Shown in pieces: positions 39,142-63,375 of a stretch of DNA of 64,000 nucleotides. The number at the start of each line of letters is the position of its first letter. The first letter of the stretch is position 1. The stretch covers positions 12,423 through 76,422 of the forward strand of contig NZ_JACYVH010000009.1 of NCBI RefSeq assembly GCF_014842255.1, written 5' to 3'. The translations under genes were made by a program, and so were the position numbers. The notes below the pieces were generated by a model. The model ran no database searches, had not been told where the DNA came from, and saw only the letters and a program-made list of their open reading frames with translations. This stretch comes from Frigoribacterium sp. CFBP 13712 (GTDB lineage: Bacteria > Actinomycetota > Actinomycetes > Actinomycetales > Microbacteriaceae).

Positions 39142-41655
39142 ATGACATCGCTCCGCCTGCGCAACGCTCTGACCGCAGGGCTCGTGCTCGCCCTCGCCGC
39201 CCCACTGGTCGTGGCGTCGAGCCCGCATCCGGCCGCGGCCTCTGCCTCTGCCTCTGCCTCTGCGGCGGCGGCGGCGCTCTCGTCCGACGCCGTGCCCGGC
39301 GGCCCCCGCCCGACCTCGATCCGCCTCAGCGACGACGACGCGTCGACCACCGTGCTCGTCCACGGGCTGGGCTCCGCGAGCCAGGCGCAAGGCCGCGAGA
39401 ACCGGTCGATGCGCCACAGCGACCGCCAGCCGACCGGGCGCTTCGCGTCGAACGGCGACACCCTGACCGTGACCGTCCCCGACGACGCCCCCGCCATGTC
39501 GATCGCCATCGGCCTGTTCGGGCCGCACGCGGCGTACAACGACGGAGCCGACCGCGGCCAGTGGTCGAGCGCGCTCACCCCGGGCGTGAACACGATCACC
39601 GCACCCCTCGACGGCATGGTGCACCTGACCAGCACCGTCGAGGGCGGTTCCGCCGACGTGATCGTCGAGGGCGGACGACCCGTCCCGGTGTTCATCGCCG
39701 GTCAGACCACGAACGAGGCGCTGCGAGCCGAGATGACGCGCCTCGCCGACGCCCCGTTCGTCCAGGTGATCGGCGACCGCTTCTTCGGGGACTTCCAGAC
39801 CGATGCGACGGGCACGGTGATCGTCCGGGTCGACATGGAGACCCGGGTCGCCGAACTCGACCACGCCATCGAGGTCACGAACCGCACCTACGGTCTGCGC
39901 GACGACGGAACCGGACTCGCCCGCAAGTCCGGTCACCGCATCTACGTCGCGGCGCCGGACACCGGCGGCGGCTACGCGAGCGCGACGCACGAACGCGTGA
40001 ACTTCCCCGTCCGGACGGGGGCCGCAGGCGACCTCTTCCGCGCCTCCGCAGACGACCAGTGGGGCTGGTGGCACGAGGTCGGTCACACCTATCAGACCCC
40101 GACCTTCAACTGGGCCGGTCAGGGCGAGGTGCTCGTCAACCTCTCGCCCCTCCACATCCAATCGAGCAACGGGTGGCCGAACCGACTCGACCGCATGGTG
40201 GGCGGCTTCGACTCGTTCTTCGCGCAGCCGGTCGAGGAGCGGGTGTACATGTCGGAGGGCAACGTCTGGACTCGGCTCTTCCTCTACGACCAGCTGCGCC
40301 GGGCGTTCGGCGACGACTTCTACCCCCGGGTGAACCAGGAGTACCGCGTCATGCGCGCCCTGGGCGAGCAGCAGCCCTCGGGCGCCGAGGCCCAGCGGCA
40401 GCTGTTCGCGGTGACGACGTCGCGCGTCGCCGACCGGGACCTCTCCGAGTACTTCCGACAGTGGGGCTTCGCTCTGGACGACGAGACGAAGGCCGCCCTC
40501 GCCGAGCTGCCGCCCCTGCAGAACCCGATCTGGGAGAACCGGCTGTCGACCGAGCCCGTCGTCGAGCGCGCGGTGCCCGCGTACACCGTCCCGGTGGGCG
40601 CGCTCGACGCCGTCGACGAGTCGGTCACCCTCGGTCAGCGCGCCCTCGTGACACCGCCGACGACGCGCGACCTCCGCGACTCCGACGGCGCCGGCGAGGT
40701 CGAGGTGCTCGGCACGAGCCTCGACGCGGCGGGTGTCGGCACGGGCGCGGGCGCGGCACGTCTCACCGCCGTGAACGACACCGGCGTCCGCGAGGTCCTC
40801 TCGACGCCAGTGACCGTCACCCCCGGCTCTTCCTTCCAGTTCAGGGGCCGGCAGGACCGCGTCGTCGCGACCCTCGCCCTCGAGCCGACGACCGACGAGC
40901 TCCGGATGACGGCGGGGACGACCTACACGGCGCACTCGGACTTCGGCGCCGACGAGTACGTCGGAGCGACCGTGTACGACGCCCGGGGTCGCGAGCAGGG
41001 GTCCTTCTCCGTCGCCGGGCGCGACACCGCCCATGCCGCCGCCGCGGCGTTCGACGGGACCTCCGTCGGCGAGGACTGGTACATCACGATCCGCCACCGG
41101 GAGGCGGGCAGCCGGCTGTCGCGCTGGGACGCCGACAGCCCCGTCGGGCGGAACGACGCGAGGACGCAGCACTACCGGGTGGTCGACGACCGCCTGACCG
41201 CCGTCGACTCCGTCCCGACCGCGCCCGACGGCTCGATCTCCGCCGTGCCGGCGAACGGCACGGTGCTGCTGAGCCGCGGTTCGTCGACCGCCGTCCCCGT
41301 CACGATCGAGGCGGTGGACCGGGTCACGTCGCTCGAGACCGAGCTCGTGCTCACGGCCCCTGCGGGCACCGTGTTCTCCGGATCGCAGGAGGCGCTGGTC
41401 ACCGAACTGCGCCTCCCCGGCCGGTCGTGGGCCGCCACCGGCAGCGTCACCGCCACGGACGGCGTGCCGAGCGACGACGGTCGGACGCTGACGCTCACGG
41501 TCCGCGGGGCGAGCGGGCTCGATCTGCCCGACGGCGCGCGTCTGCGCTGGGCACCCGTGGTCGCCGTCCCCGACGAGGGGGCGCCGATCGGCGGCGGCCT
41601 CGACTGGACCCTGACGGGCACCGCCGGGGGTGCGGCGGTCGCGACCGGGAGCTGA
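39142..41655 (+). CDS. Secreted M60-like (enhancin-type) metallopeptidase 1
   Basis: An 837-residue secreted zinc peptidase. A Sec signal peptide (residues 1 to about 37) is followed by a low-complexity Ala-Ser stretch. The gluzincin motif is His311-Glu-Val-Gly-His315 (HEVGHTYQ), and the third ligand Glu is likely in GQGEVLVNL. The N-terminal beta domain (RHSDRQPTGRFASNGD) is typical for M60-like proteins, which cleave mucin-type glycoproteins in characterised cases. The last 130 residues (about 706-837) are an accessory module shared with three other secreted proteins in the window. ATG 39142 has a GAGGACC site. No sorting signal or anchor is seen, so it is probably released. Confidence 0.88.
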   Translation: MTSLRLRNALTAGLVLALAAPLVVASSPHPAAASASASASAAAAALSSDAVPGGPRPTSIRLSDDDASTTVLVHGLGSASQAQGRENRSMRHSDRQPTGRFASNGDTLTVTVPDDAPAMSIAIGLFGPHAAYNDGADRGQWSSALTPGVNTITAPLDGMVHLTSTVEGGSADVIVEGGRPVPVFIAGQTTNEALRAEMTRLADAPFVQVIGDRFFGDFQTDATGTVIVRVDMETRVAELDHAIEVTNRTYGLRDDGTGLARKSGHRIYVAAPDTGGGYASATHERVNFPVRTGAAGDLFRASADDQWGWWHEVGHTYQTPTFNWAGQGEVLVNLSPLHIQSSNGWPNRLDRMVGGFDSFFAQPVEERVYMSEGNVWTRLFLYDQLRRAFGDDFYPRVNQEYRVMRALGEQQPSGAEAQRQLFAVTTSRVADRDLSEYFRQWGFALDDETKAALAELPPLQNPIWENRLSTEPVVERAVPAYTVPVGALDAVDESVTLGQRALVTPPTTRDLRDSDGAGEVEVLGTSLDAAGVGTGAGAARLTAVNDTGVREVLSTPVTVTPGSSFQFRGRQDRVVATLALEPTTDELRMTAGTTYTAHSDFGADEYVGATVYDARGREQGSFSVAGRDTAHAAAAAFDGTSVGEDWYITIRHREAGSRLSRWDADSPVGRNDARTQHYRVVDDRLTAVDSVPTAPDGSISAVPANGTVLLSRGSSTAVPVTIEAVDRVTSLETELVLTAPAGTVFSGSQEALVTELRLPGRSWAATGSVTATDGVPSDDGRTLTLTVRGASGLDLPDGARLRWAPVVAVPDEGAPIGGGLDWTLTGTAGGAAVATGS

Positions 41656-41681
41656 CGACCGGCCGTGGGCGGGACGGCGGG

Positions 41682-41753: not shown

Positions 41754-41780
41754 CCCCGTCCCCCAGCAGAAAGACGCGCC

Positions 41781-42475: not shown

Positions 42476-45400
42476 ATGCATACGCGTCTCGTCCGTTCCG
42501 CCCTCACGACCGTCGTCGTGGCGGTGTTGACCGCCCCGCTGCTCGTCGGGGCCGCGCCGCAGCAGGTGGCGGCGGCCGCGCCCGGCGACTCGAGCCCGTC
42601 CGCCGGGCCGTCGTCGAGCCACGGCGCGTCCGACGCCGTCGTCACGTCGTCGACCCCCGGCGGCCCCCGACCGACGTCGATCCGCCTCAGCGAGGACGAC
42701 GCGACGACCACGGTGCTCGTGCACGGGCTCGGCGACGCGCAGACGGAGAGACAGCGCGAGAACCGCCGGATGCGGCACAGCGACCTCCAACCGACGGCCC
42801 GCTACGTCCGCGCCGGTGAGGAGCTGACCGTGGCCGTACCCGAGGGCGCGCCCGCCCTCTCGCTCGTGATCGGTCTCTACGGAGCCCACTCCGAGCACAA
42901 CGGCGGCGGGGCGCGCAACCGGCAGAACGCGGCTCTCACCCCGGGGGTGAACGTCGTCACGGCGTCGCTCGACGGCATGGTCTTCCTGCGGAGCACCGTC
43001 GACGGCGGTTCCGCCGACGTCGAGCTCTCGGGCGGCGAGCCCGTCCCGTCGTTCGTGCTCGGCCAGACGACGAACGACGAGCTGCGCGCCGAGATGGGCC
43101 GCCTCCCCGACGCCCCGTTCGTCACCGTGATCGGCGAGCGCATCTTCGGCGACTTCCAGCGATCGCGCACCGGCGCGCAGATCCTCGCCGCGGACGTCCC
43201 CGCGCGGGTGGCCATGTGGGATCGCAGCGTCGAGATCACCAACGACACCTACGGCCTGCACGACGGCGCCACCGGTCTCGCCCGCAAGGCCCCGCACCGC
43301 ATCTACGTCGCGTCGCCCGACAACATCCCCGGGGCGTACGCGACGGCCGGCGACGAGAGCATCAACTTCCCGGCGAACGGGGCCGCCCGCGACCTGTTCG
43401 TGCGCGACGAGACCCGCCTCTGGGGCTTCTGGCACGAGATCGGTCACACCTATCAGGCCCCGAACTACCTCTGGGCGGGGTTGAGCGAGGTCACGGTGAA
43501 CATCTCGCCGCTGCACATCGAGTCGGCCCAGGGCTGGTCGAGCACCATCGACTCCCCCGGTCACCTCAGCACCCTCGACCGCTACTTCGCCCGCCCGGTG
43601 GAGGAGCGTTCGTACGCGTCGTCGGGCACGAACGAGATCGTCTTCGACCACCTGCGTCGGGGGTTCGGCGACGAGTTCTACCCTCGCCTCAACCAGGAGA
43701 TGCGAGTCATCGCCGCCCGGGGCGAGAGCGATTCGCTGACCGACGAGGCGAAACGCCAGCTGTTCGCGATCACGGCGGCCCGGGTGGCCGACCGAGACCT
43801 CCGCGAGTTCTTCCGCCAGTGGGGCATCGCCCTGTCGCCGGCCACGTCGACCGCGATGGCCGAGCTGCCGGCTCTCACGGAGCCCATCTGGCGGAACCGG
43901 CACAGTCGCGACCGGATCCGCGAGTACACGATGCCGGCCTTCACCTACCCGACGGGATCGATCGACCGGATCGACGAGCAGGTCGCCGTCGGACAGCGAC
44001 AGCTGGCCACCGCCCCCGAGGCGACGGGGCTCGCGAACTCCGACGGCGTCGGGTCGATCCGGGTTCAGGATCACACCGTCCGCGCGAACGCGGCGGGGGT
44101 CGGTGCCGGAACGGCGGGAGTGACGGTCGCGAACGAGTCGGGCATCCGCGAGATGTTCTCGACTCCGCTCACCGTGCGACCCGGCAGCATGTTCGAGTTC
44201 ATCGGCATCGCGTCCCGCTACATCGGCTGGATGGCGCTCGAGCCCGCCACGCACGAACTGCGGTTCTCCGCCTCGTCCGGCTACCCCAGCCATGACAGCT
44301 TCCGCGGGCGGGAGTACGTCGGCGTGACGGTATACGACGACCGCGGTCGCGAACGCTCGTCGCTCTCCATCGAGGGCCAGGACACCGCCCACTCCGTCGC
44401 GAAGGCCTTCGACGGCAGTCGCGCCGAGGACGGCTGGTACGTCGTCGTCCGACACCGTGAGGCGAACACGCGCCTGACCTGGTGGGACGACGACGTCCAG
44501 CAGCCGCGCGATGCGGCGACCGTGCGCCTCCTGAAGGTCGACGGCACCCGCCTCGTGCCCGTGACGGCGATCCCCGGTCGCGGGGCCGCGGCGACGGTCG
44601 CTCGAGGCCTGCCCGGCGAGACCACCGACACCGCGCGGGTGGACGTCCGATCGCGTCAATCGGGTGTGATGACGGTCGAGGCGCCCGCCGGTACGACGAT
44701 CGCCGATGTTCAGGTCCGTCGCACGAACGACGACCACGCGTGGCCGTCCATCGACTACGACTACGCCGACGACCGGCGTCGCGTGACGATCACGAGTCGG
44801 ACCGGTGACGGCTCCATCGCCTACGGCCCCGGCGGCGACAACCACGTCACCGTCTCGTTCGACGTCGCGGAGGACGCCCCCGCCGACACCCTGCTCGGCG
44901 GCGGGCTCGCCGAGGTGACCGCGGTCGGCGGGTCGATCGCCCTCGCCGGGGCTCACGTGTCCGTCTCCACGTCGTCCGTCGAGCACGGTGCGCTCTCGCC
45001 GAGGTCCGCTGAGCAGGTCACGCTGACCCGAGGCGGCACCACCCGCGTGCCGTTCGAGGTCGCCGTCTCGACCGCGGCCCTCACGCGACCCACGGGGACG
45101 ATCACCCTGACGGCGCCGACCGGCAGCACCTTCGCCGCCGGCCAGGACACGATCCGCGGCGCCTGGTACCGCGACGACCTCCCCGACGGAAGAGGCATGC
45201 GCCTGACCGGCACCCGCTCGGCCGACGGGACCCGGTACGAGTACTCGTGGGCGCCCATCGACGATGCGGCACCGAACTGGTCGTCGCCCCGGCACGAGGT
45301 GCTGCGCTGGTCGCTCGACGTCGTGACCGCCCGAGACGCCGACCCGGAGGCCGGCGCCCTCGGCTACGCCGTCACCGGCACCTCGGAGACCGGCGCCTTC

Positions 45401-45865
45401 GACGCCCGCGGTGGCACGCCCACCATCCCGGAGGGCGTCGCGAGCCTCGTCGCCGGCCAGGTCGACGAGACGGTGACCCTGCTGCGGGGAGGGTCGGCCC
45501 CCGTTCCGTTCGTCGTCCAGACCACGACCGCCCTCGACGGGCTCACCGGTCGCCTGGAGCTCATCGCTCCTGCCGGCACCGTGTTCACCGACGCCGAGGA
45601 GGCGCTGGTCACCCGGGTGCGCGCCCCCGGAGGCCGGTGGGTCGCCACCCCCGACCTGGTGGTCGACGACGCGACGCTCGGGCGCGAGGGGCGCTCGATG
45701 ACCCTGTCGGTGCGGACGACCGGCGATCTCGGGCTCGAACCCGGTTCGGAGATCCGCTGGGCCGCAGGCGTCGAGGTCACGACCAGCGCGGCCCTCGGCG
45801 ACGCCGACCTGCGCTGGGTCTTCAGCGGCGAGGCCGACGGACGAGAGGTCGCTGCGCGCGACTGA
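42476..45865 (+). CDS. Secreted M60-like (enhancin-type) metallopeptidase 2
   Basis: A 1129-residue paralogue of the peptidase at 39142, with signal peptide (1 to about 35), zinc motif His320-Glu-Ile-Gly-His324 and likely third ligand in GLSEVTVN. The first 700 residues align through most of their length with the first protein. After that it carries a module (about 720-840) also found in the repeat protein at 55546, then two copies of the accessory module (about 845-985 and 997-1129) where the first peptidase has one. No membrane anchor is visible. It ends at the strong hairpin 45947-45985. The target glycoprotein is unknown. Confidence 0.88.
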   Translation: MHTRLVRSALTTVVVAVLTAPLLVGAAPQQVAAAAPGDSSPSAGPSSSHGASDAVVTSSTPGGPRPTSIRLSEDDATTTVLVHGLGDAQTERQRENRRMRHSDLQPTARYVRAGEELTVAVPEGAPALSLVIGLYGAHSEHNGGGARNRQNAALTPGVNVVTASLDGMVFLRSTVDGGSADVELSGGEPVPSFVLGQTTNDELRAEMGRLPDAPFVTVIGERIFGDFQRSRTGAQILAADVPARVAMWDRSVEITNDTYGLHDGATGLARKAPHRIYVASPDNIPGAYATAGDESINFPANGAARDLFVRDETRLWGFWHEIGHTYQAPNYLWAGLSEVTVNISPLHIESAQGWSSTIDSPGHLSTLDRYFARPVEERSYASSGTNEIVFDHLRRGFGDEFYPRLNQEMRVIAARGESDSLTDEAKRQLFAITAARVADRDLREFFRQWGIALSPATSTAMAELPALTEPIWRNRHSRDRIREYTMPAFTYPTGSIDRIDEQVAVGQRQLATAPEATGLANSDGVGSIRVQDHTVRANAAGVGAGTAGVTVANESGIREMFSTPLTVRPGSMFEFIGIASRYIGWMALEPATHELRFSASSGYPSHDSFRGREYVGVTVYDDRGRERSSLSIEGQDTAHSVAKAFDGSRAEDGWYVVVRHREANTRLTWWDDDVQQPRDAATVRLLKVDGTRLVPVTAIPGRGAAATVARGLPGETTDTARVDVRSRQSGVMTVEAPAGTTIADVQVRRTNDDHAWPSIDYDYADDRRRVTITSRTGDGSIAYGPGGDNHVTVSFDVAEDAPADTLLGGGLAEVTAVGGSIALAGAHVSVSTSSVEHGALSPRSAEQVTLTRGGTTRVPFEVAVSTAALTRPTGTITLTAPTGSTFAAGQDTIRGAWYRDDLPDGRGMRLTGTRSADGTRYEYSWAPIDDAAPNWSSPRHEVLRWSLDVVTARDADPEAGALGYAVTGTSETGAFDARGGTPTIPEGVASLVAGQVDETVTLLRGGSAPVPFVVQTTTALDGLTGRLELIAPAGTVFTDAEEALVTRVRAPGGRWVATPDLVVDDATLGREGRSMTLSVRTTGDLGLEPGSEIRWAAGVEVTTSAALGDADLRWVFSGEADGREVAARD

Positions 45866-47031: not shown

Positions 47032-48051
47032 TCAGACGGATGCGACCGCGGTGGTGTCGTGGAGGCCGGATGCCCGCGCGGCGTCGGCCCAGCGCAGGGC
47101 GTCGGCGATGCCGTCGTCGACGGTCAGGCGCGCCTCCCAGCCGAGCAGGTCGAGGGCGGCCGAGACGTCGGCGAAGGCACCGGCCGTGTCGCCGACCCGC
47201 CGCCCCGCGACCTCGACCCGGGGGGCGTCGCCGACGACGCGCGCGAAGGCCTCGACCAGCTCGAGGACGGTCGTGCCCCGACCGGTGCCGAGATTGAGGG
47301 CCCGGAACGGCCTGGACGCGTCGACGACCTCGTCGAACCGGTCGACGACGAGGGCGTGAGCCTCGGCGAGATCCCAGACGTGCACGTAGTCGCGCACCCC
47401 CGAACCGTCTCGGGTCGGCCAGTCGAGGCCGGTGACGGTGAAGGGCGACCCCGCCTGCCAGGCGGAGACCAGTCTGCCGAGCGCATGACTCGGCGTCGGC
47501 AGCTGAAGACCGGTGCGGAGCGCCGGATCGGCCCCGATGGGGTTGAAGTAGCGGAGGGCGACGGCCCGGAGGCCGCCGGCCGTCGCGCCGGCCTCGAGCA
47601 CGCGCTCGACGACGGCCTTGGTGTCGGCGTACGGACTGAGCGGCGCCAGCGGCGACCCCTCGTGCACGACGCCGTCGATCGGCGTCTCGTAGATCGCCGC
47701 CGACGAGCTGAAGACGACGCGATCGAGGCCGTTGCGCGTGAGGCTCGTCAGGAGGGAGACGGTGCGGGCGACGTTGCAGTCGAAGTAACCGAGCGGATCG
47801 GCGACCGAGTCGGGCACGACGATCTTGGCGGCGCAGTGCACGACGACGTCGATGTCGGGGTTCTCGCGGGCGATCCGATCGATCAGGGCCGCGTCGGCGA
47901 TGTCGCCCCGGTAGAAGCGGTGGCGTTCGGCGAAGGCCGCGACACCCGTCGACAGATCGTCGAGCACGATCACGTCGTGCCCTCGGTCGGCGCAGGCCGA
48001 GGCGATGGTGCTGCCGATGAACCCGGCGCCGCCGGTGATGAGAACCGTCAC
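47032..48051 (-). CDS. galE: UDP-glucose 4-epimerase
   Basis: A 339-residue extended SDR enzyme interconverting UDP-glucose and UDP-galactose (or the N-acetyl forms). GGAGFIGS is the NAD site, SSSAAIYE holds the catalytic Ser, and Tyr141-x3-Lys145 (YADTK) is the catalytic pair. ALRYFNPIGADP and DGSGVRDYVHVWDLAEAH are GalE-type motifs, which argue against a 4,6-dehydratase. GTG 48051 has GGGGAGG four bases upstream, and an AT-rich promoter lies 30-40 bases before it. It supplies donor sugar to the glycosyltransferase encoded next. Confidence 0.93.
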   Translation of the reverse strand: MTVLITGGAGFIGSTIASACADRGHDVIVLDDLSTGVAAFAERHRFYRGDIADAALIDRIARENPDIDVVVHCAAKIVVPDSVADPLGYFDCNVARTVSLLTSLTRNGLDRVVFSSSAAIYETPIDGVVHEGSPLAPLSPYADTKAVVERVLEAGATAGGLRAVALRYFNPIGADPALRTGLQLPTPSHALGRLVSAWQAGSPFTVTGLDWPTRDGSGVRDYVHVWDLAEAHALVVDRFDEVVDASRPFRALNLGTGRGTTVLELVEAFARVVGDAPRVEVAGRRVGDTAGAFADVSAALDLLGWEARLTVDDGIADALRWADAARASGLHDTTAVASV

Positions 48052-48086: not shown

Positions 48087-48114
48087 TAGAATATCACATT
48101 GCTGACAGATATTC
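48087..48114 (-). promoter_or_regulatory. Shared AT-rich promoter element, galE operon, with inverted repeat
   Basis: On the minus strand ATGTGATATTCTA (48099-48087) is nearly identical to the element before the second M60 gene. TATTCT as -10 gives a leader of about 30 bases to GTG 48051. GAATATC (48089-48095) and GATATTC (48108-48114) are a perfect inverted repeat with a 12-base spacer, which may be a regulator site. Confidence 0.65.
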
Positions 48115-49465
48115 AGAGATGCGTGACGGGCCCTCGGTCCGATCTCGGACGTCGGACGAGTCGCGCCGCCCTGACGAGGGCGCAGACGACCGCGCCGATG
48201 AGCACCGAGGCCATCAGCCACAGCTGCGGGTCGCCCACCCCGGGGGCAGACACGGCCACGAGGCAGACGGCGACCGACGCGGCCGTCGCCACGAGGTCGC
48301 TCACCAGCCAGACGCGCAGGTGCCCCCGAGCGGCGCAGACCATCGAGAGGGCCGTCGCCACGCCGCGGACGACGGCGGCGGCCAGCAGGACGACGCCCGC
48401 CACGACGACGCCCGGGTACCGGTCGGTCAGCAGCCCGGCGGCGCCCCACTGCACGACCCCGGCGATCAGCGCGCAGGCGAGGCAGACCGCGCCGACGATC
48501 GCGACGAACCGGTCGGCACGGAGGGGCGATCGACCCGACCGCGGGTCGATCACCAGACGCCCGACCATGTTCTTGCCCAGATAGACGGGCACGAGCAGCA
48601 CCAGCGCGGCGAAGCGGTTGGCGACGGCGAAGGTCGCCACGGCCTCGAGTCCCCCGACCATCTGCAGCGCCCACAGCACGACCCACGGCCCGATCTGACC
48701 CGCCGAGGCCGCGGCGAGCCCGGTCAGCGTCACGCCTCGATCGCCGGTCGACGCCGCGGTCACTCCTGCGGTCACCCCTGCGGACGACGCCGGTCGCGAC
48801 CCGAGGAGCGCCTCGACACCCGGCCGACGGGAACACCGGGCGATGGCCGCCAGGACCCAGAGAGCGACGACGGCGTCGAGCAGCACGAGACCGACGGCCG
48901 CGCCGAGGGCCCCCGCCCACAGCCCGCCGGCGACGGCCAGAAGACCCGAGACGAGACCCCGGGACCCGTCGACGACCGCGGTCGACACGGTGCGCCCCGA
49001 CCCCGCCAGCACGCCGACGAAGGTCTCGGTCACCGTGATGCCGCCGGCGGCGAGACCCACCGCGAACGCGGCGAGCGCGAGCTCGGGATGCCCGTAGACG
49101 ACCGAGAGACCGACCGAGACGACGGCGCCGTCGGCGAGCGCCACGACGCCGAACCAGCGCTTGCGACCGCGGACGGCCTCGGCGAAGGCGACGAGAGGGG
49201 ATTCCCTCGCCGCGCCTCCTGCACCCTCCGTCGCGGTGCGACGACGGGCCGCCGAAGCCGCCGCCGACACGGCGAAGGCGGAGCTGCTCAGCGAGGCGAC
49301 GCCGAAGACCGTCGCCTGCACGAGCGAGAACAGCCCGAACTCCGTCGGCGAGACGACGAGCGCCAGGGTGGTCAGCGCGACGAACTGGACGCCCTTGCCC
49401 GCCAGCCCGGAGGCGGCGGCCACCGCCGGGCCCGACCAGGAGGCGCGCGAGGGTCGGGCGGTCAC
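48113..49465 (-). CDS. Polysaccharide flippase (Wzx-like, block 2)
   Basis: A 450-residue polytopic membrane protein with 12-14 hydrophobic segments, organised like MATE-superfamily polysaccharide exporters: GPAVAAASGLAGKGVQFVALTTLALVVSPTEFGLFS-like N-terminal pair of helices and a central AVATFAVANRFAALVLLVPVYLG. It should flip the block 2 lipid-linked repeat. GTG 49465 overlaps the Wzy stop (GTGA), so it follows Wzy in the operon. Little residue-level similarity to the block 1 flippase is visible, supporting a different repeat unit. Confidence 0.85.
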   Translation of the reverse strand: MTARPSRASWSGPAVAAASGLAGKGVQFVALTTLALVVSPTEFGLFSLVQATVFGVASLSSSAFAVSAAASAARRRTATEGAGGAARESPLVAFAEAVRGRKRWFGVVALADGAVVSVGLSVVYGHPELALAAFAVGLAAGGITVTETFVGVLAGSGRTVSTAVVDGSRGLVSGLLAVAGGLWAGALGAAVGLVLLDAVVALWVLAAIARCSRRPGVEALLGSRPASSAGVTAGVTAASTGDRGVTLTGLAAASAGQIGPWVVLWALQMVGGLEAVATFAVANRFAALVLLVPVYLGKNMVGRLVIDPRSGRSPLRADRFVAIVGAVCLACALIAGVVQWGAAGLLTDRYPGVVVAGVVLLAAAVVRGVATALSMVCAARGHLRVWLVSDLVATAASVAVCLVAVSAPGVGDPQLWLMASVLIGAVVCALVRAARLVRRPRSDRGPVTHL

Positions 49466-50979: not shown

Positions 50980-50990
50980 GAGTGACATAG

Positions 50991-55392: not shown

Positions 55393-55411
55393 GGAACAGC
55401 CTTTCTCGAAA

Positions 55412-55432
55412 CTTGAGTGGGACGGACTCAAG
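55412..55432. promoter_or_regulatory. HAIR operator (HspR binding site) of clpB
   Basis: CTTGAGT (55412-55418), seven bases, ACTCAAG (55426-55432) is an exact match to the HspR-associated inverted repeat known from Streptomyces and mycobacteria. It lies 20 bases before the clpB start, placing the gene in the HspR heat-shock regulon. Confidence 0.93.
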
Positions 55433-55545
55433 TTTACGCGCGGGCGCTCGAAACACAAGCGGTCCTCTGTTTGGAATTACAGATGTTTTAAGTAAGCATG
55501 TCATCTGCTGCGCCGCGTCCGACGGCGCCTCACGAAAGCGATCAC

Positions 55546-58500
55546 ATGAGAAGAACCATCCGGAGACTGCTGACCGGCGGGGTCGTCGCAGCACTCCTCG
55601 CCGGGGGCATGACCCTCCCCGCGTCAGCAGCGCCTGCGCCCACCTCGTTCAGTTCACCATTGGTCTTCCAGAATCCCACGGGCGGTTACATCGCCTACTC
55701 CCCCGGGCCACCTGTCGGCGACATCGAAATGCGGAGCTTCCGCGCGACGACCCACGCGACCTACTCTCAAGCCGCTGGGTCGGCCGTCTCGGTCTCTCTG
55801 CCGGACCCCGGCGCCGGCGACGCCATCGTCAAACTCGCCGGCGGTGAATGCCTGACCACCCTCGATGGGGCGGGGCCGGGTCGCACCCTCGTCGCATCGA
55901 AGGCCTACTGCGGCGGGTACGGCTACACCTGGTCCGTCACGCGGGATGGCCGCGTCATCTCGTTCTTCGGCTCCACGGGCATGGGGCCGACCCAGCCAGC
56001 TCAGACGGGATACTGGCCGTTCACCGGTCTGCGCCCTCTCCTCTCCGCCGGAGGCTATCCGCTCGGAGGCAGCCGATTCGAGGCCGACCCGCTCGTCGTG
56101 CGCGTCGACCGCGTGAACGACATCGCCCGCACAGCCGTCCTGTCGGGTACGGCGACGAAGAACGCCCAGGTCCGAGCTCAGGGTCGGACGACGACCGCGG
56201 ACCCGACGACCGGCATCTGGTCGCTCGATGTCCGTGATCTCGCGGTAGGGGCCAACAACATCGATGTGATCCAGCGAGTCGGAGGCGTCGATCGGGACAC
56301 CCAGACGGCACGCATCGACATCGTCGACGGCGGGCGAGTCGTGCCGGCGCCGGTCTCTTCGGTCGAGCTGGCGCGGGGCGGCGAGACCGAGGTGCCCTTC
56401 ATCGTCTCGAACCGAGCAGCCCGAGCGAACATGACGGGCGTCGTCGAGCTGACGGCCCCCGAGGGGTCGACCTTCACACCGGGGCAGACACGCGTCACCG
56501 CAGGGGTCAACACCGCGGGCGAGGGCTCGGCCTGGACCCCGCTCCCCCGTCTCGACCTCACGAACGGCCGGGTCGGAGACGGCGGCCGGACGATGACCTT
56601 CGATCTGGCCAGCGGCTCGGGGACTCTGGCCGCGGGTCAGTACTACCGCTACGGGCTGTCCGTGACGACCCCCGCCTCCTCGGCTCCCCTCGAGTCGAGC
56701 ATGAGCTACGTGTACCGCGGCGACAGCTCGGCCGGCGACTACCGGGCCGCCGGCAGCACCGCGACCACCGTCGTGGGCTCGGCGGACATCGACACCCGCG
56801 TCGGGGCCAGCACGCCCGGCGGCACCACGGACTGGGGACGCAGCGACGTCCAGGCGACCGAGGTGCAGGGGGCGATGACGCTGACCGCCCCCGAGAGCAC
56901 CCGCTTCGCCGACGCCGAGGCCCGGCGCACCTCCGACGACACGGCCCGCGACGACCACCGCGTCGCCTACTCGAACGATCGACGCACGGTCACGATCGAC
57001 GGGCCGACCGACGGCTCCGCGGTCTGGGGCTCCGCGCACCAGTACGCCGCGTTCCGTCTGGCCCTCGACGCCGACTCCGAGCCCGGTGCCGTGCTGACGG
57101 GCGGCGAGGTCGCCGTCCGCGGCGCCGGCGGTGCCACGCTGGCCGAAGGGGCATTCCAGGTCGCGGTCGACGAGGCCGTGCCCACCCTGACCGCCGAGAT
57201 CACCCTGCTCGACGACGTCACACGACCCGCCACCATCGGCGGCGTCGGCGACGACGGAGGCACGGTGACCGTCCGTGAGGGCGACGCCGTGCTCGGTGAG
57301 GCGCGCGTCGTCGACGGTCGCTGGTCGCTCGACGTCCCCGTCTCGGTCGGACCCGGCCGCCACACCCTCACGGCCTCGCAGTCGGTCGACGGACGCCCGT
57401 TCGGCAGCGTCGAGGCCGCGCTCGACCTCGGCGCCGCCGTCGACGTCGTCGAACCGGCGAACGGCAAGATCGTCCCCGGCCGGACGACCGTGCGGGGCAC
57501 GGGCGCACCCCGAGCCGAGATCACCGTCACCGCGGCGGGCACCACGGTCGACACGACCGTCACAGCGGACGGAGCCTGGGAGGCGCGGGTCGAGATCCGC
57601 CCCGGCCACACCGCCGTCGCCGTGACCGCATCGCAGCACGCCCGCGGTGACATCGTCACCACCGACACGGCGCAGGTCGTGCCGGACTCCCCGCAGGAGC
57701 TCCGCGAGGTGGTCGTCACCGAGCCGTCGTCGCACTTCTACACGCCGCTCGAGGGCACCACCGTCGAGGGGACGGCCACGCCGTACGCGACCGTCGACAT
57801 CCGCGTCCAATGGGGCTTCACCATCGCCACGGTCGAGGCCGACGTCGACGGTCGATGGGCCTTCGACCGGGCGTTCGGGCCCTCGGCCCGGTACGAGCTG
57901 ACGGCCACGCAGACGCTGGTCGACGGCAGGACGTCGTCCTCCCCCGTCTTCGAGCTGTACGCCGACGGCTCGTTCGTGCCCGTCGTCGTGACCAGCCACG
58001 AAGACGGCGGCACCTACGTGCCCGGCAGCGTGACCTTCACCGGCCGGGCGACGCAGGGCGCCTACATCGAGGCGCGCAATCAGTACGATCGCCTGCTGTT
58101 CTCGACCCGCGCCTCGCAGGTGGCCGGCGTCTGGACGGCCTCGACCGGACTCGGACCCGTCGCGACGTACGAGATCACCGTCACCCAGAAGGCCCCGGAC
58201 GGCACGACGGGGCAGACCAGGCTGACCCTCTCGCCCGACCTGCCGTTCCGCGACCTGGCGGTGACCAGCCATGTCGACGGGGAGACGTACCGGCCGGGCC
58301 CCGTGCTGTTCACCGGCACGGGCACGCCGACCGGACGCGTCGTCGCGACGAACCAGTTCGGCGTCGTCGTCGGCGAGACCACGATCGCCACGGACGGCAG
58401 CTGGTCGTTCCGACGCGATCTCGGACCGGACGCCGATTACGACCTGACGTTCACCCAGCGGTTCCGTGACGAGGAGGACTCGGTGCGACTGCGCCTGCTC

Positions 58501-59343
58501 GCCCCCGTCTGGCAGCCGATCACGATGACCAGCCCGTCGATCGGCGACCGCTACACGCCGGGCGAACCGACCGAGTTCACCGGCCGGGCCACCCCCTTCT
58601 CGACCATCACGGCCACCACCGCGCTCGGCGGGACGCTCTTCTCGGTCGAGACGGGAGCCGACGGCGTCTGGCGGAGCACTCGGGTCTACGGCCCGGACAA
58701 CGTGTACCGGATCGACATCGCCCAGGTGGCGCGGAACGGCCGCACCGACTCCCTCGACACCTTCGTCTGGGCTCCGGACCTCCCGTGGGCACCGCTCGCC
58801 GTGACCAGTCACGTCTCCGGCGAGACCTACCGGCCCGGCGAGATCGAGCTGCGCGGGACGGGAGCCCCCGGTGCCGTGGTCGAGATCACGAACCAGTGGG
58901 GGACCCTGATGGGCCGCCCCGAGGTCGGCGGCGACGGGACCTGGTCGATGCACCGGACTCTCGGACCGACCGCGGACTACGTGCTGCGCCTGGTCATGAC
59001 GAAGGACGGACGACAGGACGAGATCGCGGGGTTCGAACTCCGCTCTCCCCGGTTCAGCGACATCGAGCTGACCGCCCCGAGCCCCGGCGAGGGATACATC
59101 GAGGGTCGCGACTACACGGTGACGGGGCGGGCGACGCCGTTCGCCACCATCCGCGCGACGACGTCCCTCGGCAATCCGCTCTTCGAGACCACGGCGGACC
59201 GCGACGGTCGGTGGGCCCACACCCGGCGCTTCGGCCCCACGCACGTCTATGTGATCGACCTCACGCAGGAGACGCGCGCTGGAGAGACCGGCGGGTACCC
59301 GCGATTCACGTTCGCACCGGCCGACGAGGCGGGCGCCTCCTGA
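55546..59343 (+). CDS. Secreted modular repeat protein 1
   Basis: A 1265-residue secreted protein of no named family. Signal peptide (1 to about 34). An N-terminal domain (about 38-185, SPLVFQNPTGGYIAYSPG, with two Cys) is shared with the paralogue at 59992. A beta module at about 265-405 is shared with both M60 peptidases, and a second at about 405-540 is shared with M60 peptidase 2. Two Ig-like domains (545-725) and six tandem repeats of about 88 residues follow (726-1265). Repeats read VTSHxxGxTYxPG...TNQWG...DGxWS...LGPxADY and alternate with an MTSPxxGDRY type. No LPXTG or transmembrane anchor. Adhesin or matrix function is a guess. Confidence 0.82.
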   Translation: MRRTIRRLLTGGVVAALLAGGMTLPASAAPAPTSFSSPLVFQNPTGGYIAYSPGPPVGDIEMRSFRATTHATYSQAAGSAVSVSLPDPGAGDAIVKLAGGECLTTLDGAGPGRTLVASKAYCGGYGYTWSVTRDGRVISFFGSTGMGPTQPAQTGYWPFTGLRPLLSAGGYPLGGSRFEADPLVVRVDRVNDIARTAVLSGTATKNAQVRAQGRTTTADPTTGIWSLDVRDLAVGANNIDVIQRVGGVDRDTQTARIDIVDGGRVVPAPVSSVELARGGETEVPFIVSNRAARANMTGVVELTAPEGSTFTPGQTRVTAGVNTAGEGSAWTPLPRLDLTNGRVGDGGRTMTFDLASGSGTLAAGQYYRYGLSVTTPASSAPLESSMSYVYRGDSSAGDYRAAGSTATTVVGSADIDTRVGASTPGGTTDWGRSDVQATEVQGAMTLTAPESTRFADAEARRTSDDTARDDHRVAYSNDRRTVTIDGPTDGSAVWGSAHQYAAFRLALDADSEPGAVLTGGEVAVRGAGGATLAEGAFQVAVDEAVPTLTAEITLLDDVTRPATIGGVGDDGGTVTVREGDAVLGEARVVDGRWSLDVPVSVGPGRHTLTASQSVDGRPFGSVEAALDLGAAVDVVEPANGKIVPGRTTVRGTGAPRAEITVTAAGTTVDTTVTADGAWEARVEIRPGHTAVAVTASQHARGDIVTTDTAQVVPDSPQELREVVVTEPSSHFYTPLEGTTVEGTATPYATVDIRVQWGFTIATVEADVDGRWAFDRAFGPSARYELTATQTLVDGRTSSSPVFELYADGSFVPVVVTSHEDGGTYVPGSVTFTGRATQGAYIEARNQYDRLLFSTRASQVAGVWTASTGLGPVATYEITVTQKAPDGTTGQTRLTLSPDLPFRDLAVTSHVDGETYRPGPVLFTGTGTPTGRVVATNQFGVVVGETTIATDGSWSFRRDLGPDADYDLTFTQRFRDEEDSVRLRLLAPVWQPITMTSPSIGDRYTPGEPTEFTGRATPFSTITATTALGGTLFSVETGADGVWRSTRVYGPDNVYRIDIAQVARNGRTDSLDTFVWAPDLPWAPLAVTSHVSGETYRPGEIELRGTGAPGAVVEITNQWGTLMGRPEVGGDGTWSMHRTLGPTADYVLRLVMTKDGRQDEIAGFELRSPRFSDIELTAPSPGEGYIEGRDYTVTGRATPFATIRATTSLGNPLFETTADRDGRWAHTRRFGPTHVYVIDLTQETRAGETGGYPRFTFAPADEAGAS
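57718..59343 (+). repeat. Six tandem about 88-residue Ig-like repeats, protein 1
   Basis: Six units, each about 265 bases, begin near VVTEPSSHFYTP, VTSHEDGGTYVPG, VTSHVDGETYRPG, MTSPSIGDRYTPG, VTSHVSGETYRPG and LTAPSPGEGYIEG. Each has a conserved DGxW and GPxxxY core. Confidence 0.85.
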
Positions 59344-59894: not shown

Positions 59895-59991
59895 CATGTC
59901 GTCCGTGTCGCTTATTCCGATGACATGTGTCATTAATGAGAGTCGTGATCCTCGACCGGGATCCTCCGACGACCAGAAAGACGACCAGCAC

Positions 59992-62900
59992 ATGAAACGA
60001 CTCCCTCAGGCGGCGGGCGCTCTCGCTCTCGCCGCCGTCCTGCTTGGCGGGGTCCTCACGCCGCCGGCGGTGGCGTCGACCGTCACCCCGAATCCGTTCA
60101 CGACCCCGCTGGCGTTCCGCTCGGCCGACGGCGGCTACGTGGCCTACCGGGAGAGCCCCGAACCCGACGACGACGGCCGGTACTCGTTCCGCGCCACCCG
60201 GCACGCGGAGCTGGCCGATGCGCTCACCACCGCCACGCGCGTGGCCCTGCCCGAGCCCGGCGCGGCGGCGGCTCCGGTCAGCCTGCCCACCGGCGACGCG
60301 TGCCTGACGTCCCTGCCGGTCGGATCCGACGCGCTCACGCTCGTCGCCGCGCCCGACGCCTGCGACGACCCCGCCGGGCTCTGGCTGGTGACGCGCGAGG
60401 GTCAGGTGCGGCCCTCGTCGGGCGACGTCGGACTCGGCGCGGTCCAGGCGGCCGACCCGTCGGTGTGGCCCAACACGGGCCTCCGACCCGCGCTGACGGC
60501 ACCGGCGGCGCCCCTCGCCGACCGACGGTTCGATCGCCGCCCGCTCGAGGCCGAGCTGGTCCAGGTGAACGACATCGCCCGCACGGCCGTCATCACGGGA
60601 ACGGCCACCTCGTTCGCCTCCGTGCGGGTCGGTGCCGTGCGGGCCGACGTCCGAGAGGACGGGACCTTCCGGATCACCGCGACGCGACTCGCCATCGGGC
60701 ACAACGAGCTCCGGATCGAGCAGGTCGTGGCCGGCGAGGTCGTCGACGCGGTCGCCCTCGACGCCGACGTCGTCGACGGCGGCCGCATCCTCCCCGCGGC
60801 AGGCCCCACCGTCGACCTCGAGCGCGGATCCGACACCGGCGTGCTCCTCGGAGTCACGACGATCGACGACTTCGCCCGCCTCGAGGGCGTGGCCGAGATC
60901 ACCGCGCCGAGCGGCACGACCCTCTCGGCGGGCCAGACGACGCTGTCCGCCGAACGTCGCGGCTCCGACGGGACGTGGGCGCCCGACACCAGGCTGGATC
61001 TCGTCGGCGGGACGACCGCGGCCGACGGTCGCCGCGCCTCCTACGATCTGCACTGGCGTGATGCGGCCGAGGCGCTGCCCTCCGGGAGCGAGGTCCGGTG
61101 GACGGTCGACATCGCCACGCCGGCATCGGCGTCCGCTGCGGCGGGTTCGCTCGGCTTCGGCTTCTCGGGGACGGGTGCCCCCAGCGACTTCCGCGCCGTC
61201 GGCTCGACGCCGACCACCATCACGGTGCCGCCCCGCGAGGTGACGGCCGAGGTGACGCTGCCCGACGCGCTCGACGAGCGTGCGGTGGTGTCCGGCGAAG
61301 GCCACGAGGGGGCTCGCATCGAGGTGAGCGTCGACGACGCCCCTCTCGGGACGACCGAGGTCGTCGACGAGGCCTGGGCGCTCGAGATCGACCCCGACCT
61401 CGGCCCGGGTCGGCACGTGCTCGACGTCGTGCAGAGCATCGACGGCGCACCCGCCGGACGCACGAGCGCCGAGGTCGACTTCGGACCGGCGGTCGACCTG
61501 GTCGCGCCCGTCTCGGGCCAGGTCGTCCCCGGCGTGACGACCGTGTCGGGCACCGGTGCGCCCGGGGCCGAGGTCACCGTGGAGGTCGACGGCCGCTCGG
61601 AGACCGCGGCAGTCGTGGACGGCGCGTGGTCCGTCGAGGTGGAGCTGCCGCCGTCGCACGACGAGGGCACCATCGAGGTCGCCCAGCGGGCGCGGGGAGA
61701 CGTCCGGTCGGCCGACCGGGTGCGGGTCGTCGCGGACGCTCGACAGGAGCTCTCGCCGGTCGTCGTCGACGGACCGGCCGACGGCTGGTACCGCAGCGGC
61801 GAAGCCACCACCCTCTCGGGGACGGCGACGCCGTACGCCCGCGTCGTGGTCCGCAACCAGTGGACGAACGAGGCCGGTCGCGCCGTGGCGGACGCCGACG
61901 GCGCCTGGTCGTTCGAACGCGCGTGGGGGCCGACGGCCGCCTACCGGCTGACCGCGACGCAGACCCTGGTCGACGGCCGCACCTCGTCGTCGGCCGAGTT
62001 CACCCTGCTCTCCCTGGGCTCGTTCCGAGCACTTGAGGTCACCAGCCACGCGGCGAACGACAGCTACGTGCCGGGCCTCACGACCTTCAGCGGCGTCGCG
62101 ACCCCCGGGGCGTGGGTGACGGCGACCAACCAGTGGGATCGACGCCTCTTCGCCACGCGGGCGTCGCAGACCACCGGCGAGTGGAGCGCGCCGGCCGAAC
62201 TCGGTCCGGTGGCCGACTACGACGTGCGGATCTCGCAGACGGCGCCCGACGGGCAGCCCGACCAGGTCCGACTGCGCCTGACGCCCATCATCGGGTGGGT
62301 GCCGGCGACCGTGACCAGCCACGTCGACGGCGGCGAGTACGTGCCGGGTCCCGTGACGCTGGCCGGCGCGGGCACTCCCCGGGCGACGATCGCCATCACC
62401 AACCAGTGGGGCGTCTCGATGGGCACCACGACCGTCGGCACCGACGGGCGCTGGTCGGTCCGTCGCGACATGGGGCCTCGAGCCTCGTACGCGCTGACCG
62501 TCGTCCAGACCCGCGGATCGGAGACGAACACCGTCGAGCTCGTGCTGAACCCGCCGGCCTGGCGGGCACTGCAGCTGCTCAGCCCGGAGGTCGGCGACCG
62601 CTACGAGCCGGGTGCGCGGACCGAGTTCCGCGGAGTCGCGACTCCGCACTCGACCGTGACGGTGACGACCGACCTCGGCTCGGTGCTCTTCCAGGCGCCG
62701 GTCGCCGCGGACGGCACCTGGTCGAACACCCGGGCGTACGGCCCCGTCCGGACGTACACGCTGACGATCGAGCAGGCGGCGACGACCGACCAGGGCGACG
62801 CGCTGCGGTTCGTCTGGGCGCCCGACATCGCCCTGCGGCCGGTCGCCGTGACCAGCCACGACGACGGCGAGACCTACCGCCCGGGTCCCGTCACGCTCGG

Positions 62901-63375
62901 CGGCACGGGCACGCCAGGCGCCACCGTGCGGGTGACGAACCAGTGGGGTGCGGCCATGGGCACGTCGGAGGTCGATCTCGACGGCCGCTGGAGCATCCAG
63001 CGCGAGCTCGGGCCGCGGAGCGACTACATCCTCACCGTGCAGCAGGACAGAGCGGGCGAGGCCGACGAGACGCGCCTCACCCTCCTCGCACCCGTCTGGC
63101 AGCGCATGACCATCGACTCCCCGGTGGTCGACGACGGTTACGACAGGGACGTCGACGTGAGGTTCGCCGGACGCGCGACGCCGTTCGCGACGATCGACGT
63201 CTCGACGGCCTCCGGGGTGCAGCTCGCGGCCCCCACGGCCGACCGGAACGGCGACTGGTCGTTCACCCGCCGGTTCGGCCCCGAGCACGTGTACACGCTC
63301 GTCTTCACGCAGCAGGCCGCGGGCCACGCCGACGACGCGCTCGACCCGATCCGGTTCGGGCCGGCCGGGGGCTGA
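59992..63375 (+). CDS. Secreted modular repeat protein 2
   Basis: A 1127-residue paralogue of the protein at 55546. Signal peptide (1 to about 27); N-terminal domain (about 28-190, TPLAFRSADGGYVAYRE) with two conserved Cys; a module beginning VNDIARTAVITGTATSF in both proteins; one copy of the module shared with the M60 peptidases (about 265-410); no copy of the second shared module; two Ig-like domains; then six tandem repeats (about 592-1127) in the same alternating order as the paralogue. ATG 59992 has an AGAAAGACG site. No anchor or sorting motif is visible. Probably a secreted surface or matrix protein. Confidence 0.82.
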   Translation: MKRLPQAAGALALAAVLLGGVLTPPAVASTVTPNPFTTPLAFRSADGGYVAYRESPEPDDDGRYSFRATRHAELADALTTATRVALPEPGAAAAPVSLPTGDACLTSLPVGSDALTLVAAPDACDDPAGLWLVTREGQVRPSSGDVGLGAVQAADPSVWPNTGLRPALTAPAAPLADRRFDRRPLEAELVQVNDIARTAVITGTATSFASVRVGAVRADVREDGTFRITATRLAIGHNELRIEQVVAGEVVDAVALDADVVDGGRILPAAGPTVDLERGSDTGVLLGVTTIDDFARLEGVAEITAPSGTTLSAGQTTLSAERRGSDGTWAPDTRLDLVGGTTAADGRRASYDLHWRDAAEALPSGSEVRWTVDIATPASASAAAGSLGFGFSGTGAPSDFRAVGSTPTTITVPPREVTAEVTLPDALDERAVVSGEGHEGARIEVSVDDAPLGTTEVVDEAWALEIDPDLGPGRHVLDVVQSIDGAPAGRTSAEVDFGPAVDLVAPVSGQVVPGVTTVSGTGAPGAEVTVEVDGRSETAAVVDGAWSVEVELPPSHDEGTIEVAQRARGDVRSADRVRVVADARQELSPVVVDGPADGWYRSGEATTLSGTATPYARVVVRNQWTNEAGRAVADADGAWSFERAWGPTAAYRLTATQTLVDGRTSSSAEFTLLSLGSFRALEVTSHAANDSYVPGLTTFSGVATPGAWVTATNQWDRRLFATRASQTTGEWSAPAELGPVADYDVRISQTAPDGQPDQVRLRLTPIIGWVPATVTSHVDGGEYVPGPVTLAGAGTPRATIAITNQWGVSMGTTTVGTDGRWSVRRDMGPRASYALTVVQTRGSETNTVELVLNPPAWRALQLLSPEVGDRYEPGARTEFRGVATPHSTVTVTTDLGSVLFQAPVAADGTWSNTRAYGPVRTYTLTIEQAATTDQGDALRFVWAPDIALRPVAVTSHDDGETYRPGPVTLGGTGTPGATVRVTNQWGAAMGTSEVDLDGRWSIQRELGPRSDYILTVQQDRAGEADETRLTLLAPVWQRMTIDSPVVDDGYDRDVDVRFAGRATPFATIDVSTASGVQLAAPTADRNGDWSFTRRFGPEHVYTLVFTQQAAGHADDALDPIRFGPAGG
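61764..63375 (+). repeat. Six tandem about 88-residue Ig-like repeats, protein 2
   Basis: Units begin near VVDGPADGWYRSG, VTSHAANDSYVPG, VTSHVDGGEYVPG, LLSPEVGDRYEPG, VTSHDDGETYRPG and IDSPVVDDGYDRD. Unit n here resembles unit n of the paralogue more than its own neighbours. Confidence 0.85.

What the first reader, a model, noticed from the sequence alone, without database searches (positions are those of the whole stretch)
39142..63375. Four giant secreted proteins share unassigned modules: two M60 peptidases and two Ig-repeat proteins
A beta module with the pattern RGG...VPF...LTAPxGTxF...GQ...DGRxMT...GSxxRW recurs at the C-terminus of M60 peptidase 1, twice in M60 peptidase 2, and inside both repeat proteins. 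A second module (MTxxAPxxTxxAD...RRTxDD...DRRxVTI...TDGS) is common to M60 peptidase 2 and repeat protein 1. Module sharing between peptidases and non-enzymatic repeat proteins implies a common ligand or surface, for example the exopolysaccharide made by the same locus. This looks like an undescribed secreted matrix or glycoprotein-processing system.
Basis: partly seen in the sequence, partly recalled or inferred. Interest (0 to 1): 0.85.

Follow-up and report, generated by a model that had tools for sequence, protein, structure and literature searches.

The report
Modular secreted glycopeptidases and lectin-headed adhesins
A bacterium of a plant- and air-associated genus carries two enzymes of the mucin-cutting M60 family and two long, probably sugar-binding fibre proteins built from the same uncatalogued spacer modules, and the tip of one fibre protein has been replaced between related strains.

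Summary
The module sharing is real: each of five module A copies is found by a model of the other four (58-90 bits; best shuffle 10.5). Module B is a distant relative of A. Neither reaches a Pfam or NCBIfam cut-off in the window proteins. Module A weakly resembles the Ig-like NEW3 domain. In loci fetched from other genera, 1 of 10 carriers is an M60; the other nine show no enzyme domain. This favours a spacer over a receptor for one ligand. Both enzymes keep the zinc and sugar-site residues of M60 glycopeptidases. Both repeat proteins have a probable beta-trefoil head on a stalk passing NCBI's Ca2+-stabilised adhesin-repeat model. M60 genes plus a polysaccharide cassette fill one chromosomal slot in 3 of 16 Frigoribacterium genomes, one clade; the slot is closed in 9. 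A fourth genome (G010) has an M60 elsewhere, with B-like modules and without this cassette, which speaks against a tight enzyme-polysaccharide link. The Rep1 head (residues 37-277) was replaced between sister genomes, with borders at the signal peptide and the start of module A. Best reading: a variable surface-protein locus whose adhesins and glycopeptidases share an Ig-type scaffold. A shared polysaccharide ligand is untested.

The parts
39091..41655 (+). M60a, secreted M60 peptidase of 854 aa; likely start at 39142 (by eye)
39400..39642 (+). M60-like_N domain of M60a
   Evidence: PF17291 28.6 bits, cut-off 23
39673..40467 (+). M60 catalytic domain of M60a; WG..HEVGH...E...N motif from residue 324
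   Evidence: PF13402 108 bits; motif
40837..41187 (+). Mucin_bdg domain of M60a
   Evidence: PF03272 42.3 bits, cut-off 27
41233..41652 (+). module A of M60a (C-terminal)
   Evidence: leave-one-out 90.1 bits
42476..45865 (+). M60b, secreted M60 peptidase of 1129 aa
43031..43825 (+). M60 catalytic domain of M60b; WG..HEIGH...E...N motif from residue 316
   Evidence: PF13402 96.8 bits; motif
44198..44479 (+). Mucin_bdg domain of M60b
   Evidence: PF03272 33.5 bits, cut-off 27
44567..44989 (+). module B of M60b
44990..45412 (+). module A copy 1 of M60b
   Evidence: leave-one-out 58.1 bits
45443..45862 (+). module A copy 2 of M60b (C-terminal)
   Evidence: leave-one-out 86.2 bits
46001..46996 (-). 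glycosyltransferase (GT4-like) of the polysaccharide cassette
47032..48051 (-). NAD-dependent epimerase/dehydratase of the cassette
48113..49741 (-). membrane protein, flippase-like by eye (no Pfam hit); true start probably downstream
49462..50988 (-). Wzy-type polysaccharide polymerase of the cassette
   Evidence: PF14296 56.4 bits
50708..52507 (+). Wzz / tyrosine-kinase-like chain-length protein of the cassette; true start probably downstream
52542..53159 (+). TrpF, conserved backbone gene flanking slot 1
53203..55458 (-). ClpC-type AAA protein, conserved backbone gene flanking slot 2
55498..59343 (+). Rep1, secreted lectin-headed Ig-repeat protein of 1281 aa
55645..56085 (+). probable beta-trefoil (lectin-like) head of Rep1
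   Evidence: profile of 13 heads matches ricin-type trefoil chains in PDB, best E 2.7e-4
55606..56328 (+). replaced segment, Rep1 residues 37-277, relative to sister genome G002
   Evidence: identity 100% before, 40% inside, 83% after; gain 96.2, best of 200 shuffles 12.3
56338..56775 (+). module A of Rep1
   Evidence: leave-one-out 86.1 bits
56779..57180 (+). module B of Rep1
57181..59340 (+). Big_6 / Ca_tandemer repeat stalk of Rep1
59896..63375 (+). Rep2, secreted lectin-headed Ig-repeat protein of 1159 aa; likely start about 59992 by eye
60088..60555 (+). probable beta-trefoil (lectin-like) head of Rep2
   Evidence: one of the 13 heads
60787..61215 (+). module A of Rep2
   Evidence: leave-one-out 83.7 bits
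61228..63372 (+). Big_6 / Ca_tandemer repeat stalk of Rep2
63479..63976 (+). conserved 165-aa protein on the far side of slot 2
   Evidence: (no Pfam hit)

Best explanation
This is a variable surface-protein locus of Frigoribacterium. Two secreted M60 metallopeptidases cut O-glycosylated proteins outside the cell (inferred from family, zinc motif and sugar-site residues). Two long secreted proteins carry a probable beta-trefoil sugar-binding head on a stalk of Ig-type, calcium-stabilised repeats and act as adhesins or matrix fibres (inferred). Modules A and B are two branches of one Ig-like domain family of Microbacteriaceae that serves as a spacer between heads or catalytic domains and the rest of the protein (inferred). 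They are shared because both protein types were assembled from the same domain repertoire, not because they must bind one ligand. The head of Rep1 is exchanged as a cassette whose downstream joint is the start of module A (shown by the mosaic). The M60 genes and a polysaccharide (Wzy/Wzz) cassette occupy one slot of a conserved backbone, the repeat proteins another (shown).
For: Module homology with controls. A related to B. Remote match of A to 16 NEW3 domains, 69-77% probability, against 0.15-26% in seven control pairings; 3 of 26 members hit PF10633 weakly. Of 10 module-A proteins in loci from other genera, 1 is an M60 and 9 have no enzyme domain at E 0.001. Zinc motif and W, G, N sugar-site residues in both M60s (site residues from passages of PMC9266454). 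Mucin_bdg in both. Heads match trefoil lectin chains, E 2.7e-4. Stalks pass NF033510 with 58.4 and 80.3 bits, cut-off 50. Slot comparison in 16 genomes. Head replacement, residues 37-277. M60s elsewhere carry module A (G142) or B-like modules (G291; G010 with 21.9, 26.3 and 15.3 bits).
Against: No fold was predicted, so the Ig-like fold of A and the trefoil fold of the head rest on weak sequence matches. A4 found nothing in the PDB. B against NEW3 gave 0.95%, and one control (A against M60 catalytic domains) has a raw score of 34.8, as high as A against NEW3 (33.4-35.0), though its probability is 26%. No LPXTG motif fit for an anchor and no C-terminal hydrophobic helix was found in any of the four, so surface retention is unexplained; that leaves room for a binding role of the modules. 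Enzyme activity and ligands are untested.
Confidence: 0.6

Rival explanations
1. Modules A and B are glycan-binding domains that tether both enzymes and repeat proteins to the polysaccharide made by the adjacent cassette, so that adhesin and glycopeptidase work together in one matrix.
For: None of the four proteins shows an anchor. Slot-1 M60 genes and the specific Wzz relative (72-89% identity) occur in the same 3 of 16 genomes. In the 398-genome family sample A and M60 co-occur in 6, expected 0.47 (hypergeometric 1e-6 by genome; 4 of 85 genera, 0.001).
Against: The three genomes are one clade, so the counts are not independent; G291 and G318, two of the six, do not carry A on the M60 protein. 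The sample left out some genus members, among them G010 (M60 without A) and G014 (A without M60). G010 has an M60 and B-headed repeat proteins but no close relative of this Wzz. Module A proteins occur without the cassette in G006. Near-invariant residues look structural.
Confidence: 0.17
2. A view of the target that can hold together with the best explanation: the M60 peptidases mainly attack foreign glycoproteins (plant cell-wall extensins, insect or fungal mucin-like proteins), and the repeat proteins hold the cell to the same surface.
For: Several M60 proteins with solved structures are named O-glycopeptidases in the PDB list. The plant-pathogen protein Svx, likened to M60 glycopeptidases, is proposed to act on extensins (passages of PMC9266454). 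Sister strains come from leaf and hay (strain names, sources recalled).
Against: Nothing in the window names a substrate; only 4 of 16 genomes of the genus have an M60.
Confidence: 0.4
3. The M60 peptidases process the strain's own glycosylated Rep proteins or other secreted glycoproteins (matrix maturation).
For: Genes are neighbours and share modules.
Against: Repeat proteins stand beside ClpC in 12 of 16 genomes, M60 occurs in 4 of 16. Stalks hold 12-20% Ser+Thr and no domain exceeds 23%, so no mucin-like domain stands out at that resolution.
Confidence: 0.12
4. The similarity is an artefact of composition in a GC-rich genome or of low-complexity beta repeats.
For: The window is 68-76% GC by 4-kb stretch and the proteins look rich in T, G, V and A.
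Against: Shuffled copies never exceeded 10.5 bits against 58-90 real; orthologous copies are conserved in other genomes.
Confidence: 0.01

Closest known systems
M60 / PF13402 O-glycopeptidases (enhancin-like; ZmpA/C, BcM60 in the PDB list)
   Same: PF13402 over cut-off, zinc motif, W/G/N sugar-site residues, Mucin_bdg and M60-like_N domains. Nakjang 2012 (PMC3267712, passages only) reports M60 proteins with CBMs, Ig-like and a few ricin-type lectin domains.
   Different: Module A/B tails are not among the domains in the passages I saw; the genus is not an animal-mucosa one (recalled); the enzymes stand beside a polysaccharide cassette.
Fibrillar adhesins with Ig-type or Ca2+-stabilised repeat stalks (Ca_tandemer NF033510, Big_6)
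   Same: Secreted, N-terminal probable sugar-binding head, stalk repeats over the curated cut-offs.
   Different: No cell-wall anchor found; head is a divergent trefoil-like domain; module A/B placed between head and stalk.
NEW3 / NPCBM_assoc (PF10633) Ig-like domain
   Same: Collinear remote match over about 86 columns, 69-77%; 3 of 26 members hit weakly.
   Different: Module A is about 65 positions longer (144 against 78), with a middle stretch that has no NEW3 counterpart in the alignment; the own genome has no PF10633 match.
Svx-type M60-like glycopeptidases of plant pathogens (Pectobacterium)
   Same: Zinc motif and W/G/N residues as given in passages of PMC9266454.
   Different: No sequence comparison was made here; whether this strain harms plants is not known from these calls.

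Membership tests
M60 peptidase (PF13402) | Family profile over curated cut-off | tested here: met
   108 and 96.8 bits, cut-off 25.8
M60 peptidase (PF13402) | HEXXHX(8,28)E zinc motif | tested here: met
   P0001 HEVGH at 328, P0002 HEIGH at 320, second Glu in place
M60 peptidase (PF13402) | GalNAc-site residues W, G before and N after the motif | tested here: met
   Present in both, in 9 of 10 other Microbacteriaceae M60 proteins scanned (L095 shows no match), and in the later found G010 protein
M60 peptidase (PF13402) | O-glycan dependent peptide cleavage | not testable with these tools
   needs enzyme assay
SslE/AcfD or ImpA subfamilies (NCBIfam) | Curated score cut-off | tested here: not met
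   P0001 28.4 of 800 and 29.5 of 250 bits; P0002 lower
Ca2+-stabilised repeat adhesin (NF033510) | Repeat model over cut-off | tested here: met
   Rep1 58.4, Rep2 80.3, cut-off 50
Fibrillar adhesin | Adhesive head plus stalk plus surface anchor | tested here: inconclusive
   Head probable, stalk met, no anchor found: the one LPXTG-like string lies in the Rep1 signal region and there is no C-terminal hydrophobic helix
Ricin-type beta-trefoil / CBM13 lectin | Sequence match to the family | tested here: inconclusive
   PDB profile search best E 2.7e-4; Pfam per member: no Ricin_B hit at E 1, CCL2-like lectin in 2 of 13, best 0.0024
Ricin-type beta-trefoil / CBM13 lectin | Three-fold trefoil structure and sugar binding | not testable with these tools
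   structure prediction switched off
NEW3 / NPCBM_assoc (PF10633) | Curated cut-off reached by the window's copies | tested here: not met
   No PF10633 match in G000 at E 0.001; 3 of 26 members hit, best 5.6e-5
NEW3 / NPCBM_assoc (PF10633) | Same Ig-like fold | tested here: inconclusive
   hhalign 69-77% against seven control pairings at 0.15-26%; one control has an equal raw score; B against NEW3 0.95%

The most novel reading that the evidence does not exclude
Modules A and B are a docking system: glycopeptidases and lectin-headed fibres are held in the strain's own polysaccharide coat through one shared domain family, and exchangeable heads retarget a common capture-and-cut apparatus. This would be an anchor-free, sortase-free display system for Microbacteriaceae surface proteins.
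Probability: 0.13. Interest if true: 0.75.

Novelty: new variant of a known kind. Interest (0 to 1): 0.45.

Why it matters
It gives a domain family (modules A/B) that reaches no Pfam or NCBIfam cut-off in the window proteins, occurs in several Microbacteriaceae genera and sits on both enzymes and adhesin-like proteins. It shows a natural head replacement at a defined domain border, and places M60 glycopeptidases, which the passages of PMC3267712 link mainly to animal-host microbes, in a plant- and air-associated genus (recalled). If the modules bind polysaccharide, they would explain how proteins without anchors stay on these cells.

Tried and rejected
Chance or composition: rejected by shuffles. 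A and B as unrelated modules: rejected. Recent exchange of module A between M60 and Rep genes: not seen; orthologous copies cluster by parent protein and position (Rep1 1.00, Rep2 0.97, M60a 0.995, M60b copies 1.00 and 0.99), while most of the deeper nodes joining these groups are weaker, from 0.14 upwards. Module A as a pan-actinobacterial domain: 2 of 396 genomes of the phylum sample match, one being the own genome, the other weak at 4.7e-4. M60-Rep co-occurrence as independent evidence: set aside, the three genomes are one clade. PDB sequence search with A4: nothing. Literature: among the titles listed (capped lists) I saw none on these proteins; all 8 papers were listed and none holds the word Frigoribacterium. 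Only passages of PMC3267712 and PMC9266454 were read; other papers were seen as listings.

Limits. In the family and phylum samples only up to 10 candidates per genome were scored for module A, so weak copies may be missed. Of 28 matches, 27 copies were aligned (one G002 copy in a short frame was not taken), and 26 of these 27 entered A4 (one truncated G006 copy dropped). Loci were fetched from 7 of the 12 genomes outside the genus that matched. Slot 2 could not be read in G001, G008 and G014. The tree used a wrong stretch for the G010 protein and its placement there is not used.
Full report
What was checked. The window is G000 contig C9, 12423-76422, in a 3.16-Mb genome. It is placed in Frigoribacterium because same-genus genomes G002 and G005 have contigs of the same lengths as Frigoribacterium sp. 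Leaf263 (160045) and F. faeni NBRC 103066 (127954) (inference). The four ORFs are present as described. Pfam gives M60-like_N, Peptidase_M60 and Mucin_bdg in M60a and M60b, and Big_6 repeats in Rep1 and Rep2. NCBIfam gives the Ca2+-stabilised adhesin repeat NF033510 over its cut-off in Rep1 and Rep2.

Modules. Module A occurs five times in the window. Models without the tested copy score it at 90.1, 58.1, 86.2, 86.1 and 83.7 bits; the best of 500 shuffles each (496-499 scored) was 7.3-10.5. Module B is shared by M60b and Rep1 (BLASTP 4.9e-12). With relatives added, A and B align at 94.8% probability. Neither module reaches a Pfam or NCBIfam cut-off in the window proteins. Over 26 copies of A, 3 hit NPCBM_assoc/NEW3 weakly (best 5.6e-5). 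Profile comparison of A with 16 NEW3 domains gave 69-77%, against 0.15-26% for seven control pairings. Against this, B with NEW3 gave 0.95%, and one control (A with M60 catalytic domains) reached a raw score of 34.8, equal to that of A with NEW3 (33.4-35.0), at 26% probability. Invariant or nearly invariant residues in A4 are A, P, G, V and W.

Distribution. In the own genome A occurs 8 times: five in the window and three in contig C13; M60 occurs only at the two window places. In a search of 60 genomes (the own one and 59 relatives), 6 match a model of the five window copies, all in the genus. With the wider model, 17 of 398 family genomes and 7 of 85 genera match, strongly in the own genus and in genus g53. 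In loci fetched from 7 of the 12 matching genomes outside the genus, 10 ORFs carry A-like modules. One is an M60. The other nine show no enzyme domain at E 0.001; seven have Big_6 repeats over the cut-off, one has fn3 domains and one no Pfam match. In the phylum sample 2 of 396 genomes match, including the own genome.

M60 enzymes. PF13402 matches 11 of 398 sampled family genomes, 10 over cut-off. A and M60 co-occur in six of these (G000, G002, G005, G142, G291, G318; hypergeometric 1e-6, by genus 0.001); the A match in G318 is weak (6.7e-6). The sample does not hold every genus member. A search of all 16 held Frigoribacterium genomes finds M60 in 4: G000 (two), G002 (two), G005 (one) and G010 (one). 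The M60 proteins of G000, G002, G005 and G142 carry A at the C-terminus. The G291 M60 carries two B-like modules before the catalytic domain and a weak adhesin-type repeat (20.7 bits, cut-off 50) after it. The G010 M60 lies outside the slots and carries B-like modules before the catalytic domain (21.9, 26.3 and, partial, 15.3 bits) and no A. M60 proteins of G034, G062, G318 and G390 carry no A. Both window enzymes keep HExxH...E and the W, G and N positions named for the sugar site in PMC9266454 (passages; motif scan).

Repeat proteins. A profile of 13 heads finds ricin-type trefoil chains and xylanase lectin domains in the PDB (best E 2.7e-4). Pfam finds CCL2-like lectin in 2 of 13 and no Ricin_B. 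I call the head a probable trefoil lectin. No anchor was found: the only LPXTG-like string is in the Rep1 signal region, and the last 100 residues of the four proteins have no hydrophobic helix (19-residue means at most 0.83).

Locus comparison. A backbone ExoEndoPhos - MemTrans - BetaElimLyase - slot 1 - TrpF - ClpC - slot 2 - ORF63479 recurs in the Frigoribacterium genomes, as far as the fetched stretches reach and with some rearrangement. Slot 1 measures 25-82 bp between tblastn ends in 9 of 16 genomes. It holds M60 genes plus glycosyltransferase, epimerase, membrane protein, Wzy and Wzz in G000, G002 and G005. In G003 it holds a remnant of an M60 C-terminus with module A and no catalytic domain. 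In G003, G006, G012 and G014 the interval is about 6-9 kb with other genes, not studied further, except that G006 has a module A repeat protein there. The Wzz relative at 72-89% identity is found only in G000, G002 and G005; the best in another genome is 54%. Repeat proteins stand beside ClpC in 12 of 16 genomes, with ORF63479 seen beyond them in 11; in G003 ClpC and ORF63479 are about 120 bp apart; G001, G008 and G014 were not readable there. Module A in that slot is seen in G000, G002, G005 and G006; module B heads the two G010 proteins and, more weakly, one of G009. A tree of five backbone genes puts G000, G002 and G005 in one clade with support 1.0. The joint presence of slot-1 M60, cassette and module A repeat proteins can thus be one event, and the within-genus count (p 0.007 for M60 in slot 1) is not independent evidence. 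Genome G142 of genus g53 has its M60 gene near ORF63479 (70%) and ClpC (76%) relatives, which suggests an older neighbourhood.

Head replacement. Rep1 of G000 and G002 is 100% identical before residue 37, 40% from 37 to 277, and 83% after (log-likelihood gain 96.2, best of 200 shuffles 12.3). In blocks of 40 codons the DNA is 93% identical at the start, 45-60% inside and 68-94% after. The borders lie at the end of the signal peptide and just before module A (residue 281). Rep1 of G005 shows a milder drop in the head (gain 22.6, shuffles 14.4). In Rep2 the blocks found are more conserved stalk stretches, one barely above shuffles (12.6 against 12.0) and one at 17.9 against 12.9. In the M60 pairs the catalytic domain is more conserved than the A and B tails. 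So the head of Rep1 is the exchanged part and module A the fixed joint.

Mechanism. Shown: homologous modules, intact catalytic motif, stalk-repeat family, slot structure, mosaic Rep1. Inferred: cleavage of O-glycoproteins by M60a/b, sugar binding by the heads, spacer role of A and B, display at the cell surface. Unknown: substrate, sugar, and how proteins without an anchor stay on the cell, if they do.

Verdict. The step from shared module to shared ligand is not supported. The system is a new variant of known kinds (M60 glycopeptidases and repeat-stalk adhesins).

Noticed in passing
window 17247-18872, with 15074-16345, 23938-25194 and 25692-27851: A second Wzz/tyrosine-kinase gene with glycosyltransferases and a UDP-glucose dehydrogenase: probably a second polysaccharide locus in the same window.
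   Followed up: partly
L036 (G000 contig C13) 1-4104: Further module A proteins side by side at a contig end: one repeat protein with a lectin-type head and one frame with two A modules, cut by the contig end.
   Followed up: partly
L044 10414-10908 (G003): Remnant of an M60 C-terminus (module A kept, catalytic domain gone) between the BetaElimLyase and nitroreductase genes: an M60 gene seems to have been lost there.
   Followed up: partly
L150 5436-7964 (G010): An M60 protein outside the slots with B-like modules before the catalytic domain and, by eye, an N-terminal membrane helix instead of a cleaved signal peptide.
   Followed up: partly
L103 1189-3963 and 4124-7048 (G010): Two neighbouring repeat proteins with module B near the N-terminus, apparently in place of a lectin head.
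   Followed up: partly
L082 (G092) 9577-12195: A secreted protein with four tandem repeats weakly like both modules A and B, in a genome without an M60 match: a possible intermediate between the two branches.
   Followed up: no
window 41781-42383: Nitroreductase gene lodged between the two M60 genes; also near BetaElimLyase in G006 and G014, which lack M60.
   Followed up: partly
window 2062-9101: GH31 glycosidase, ABC sugar transporter parts and a LacI-type regulator: probably a sugar uptake operon.
   Followed up: no
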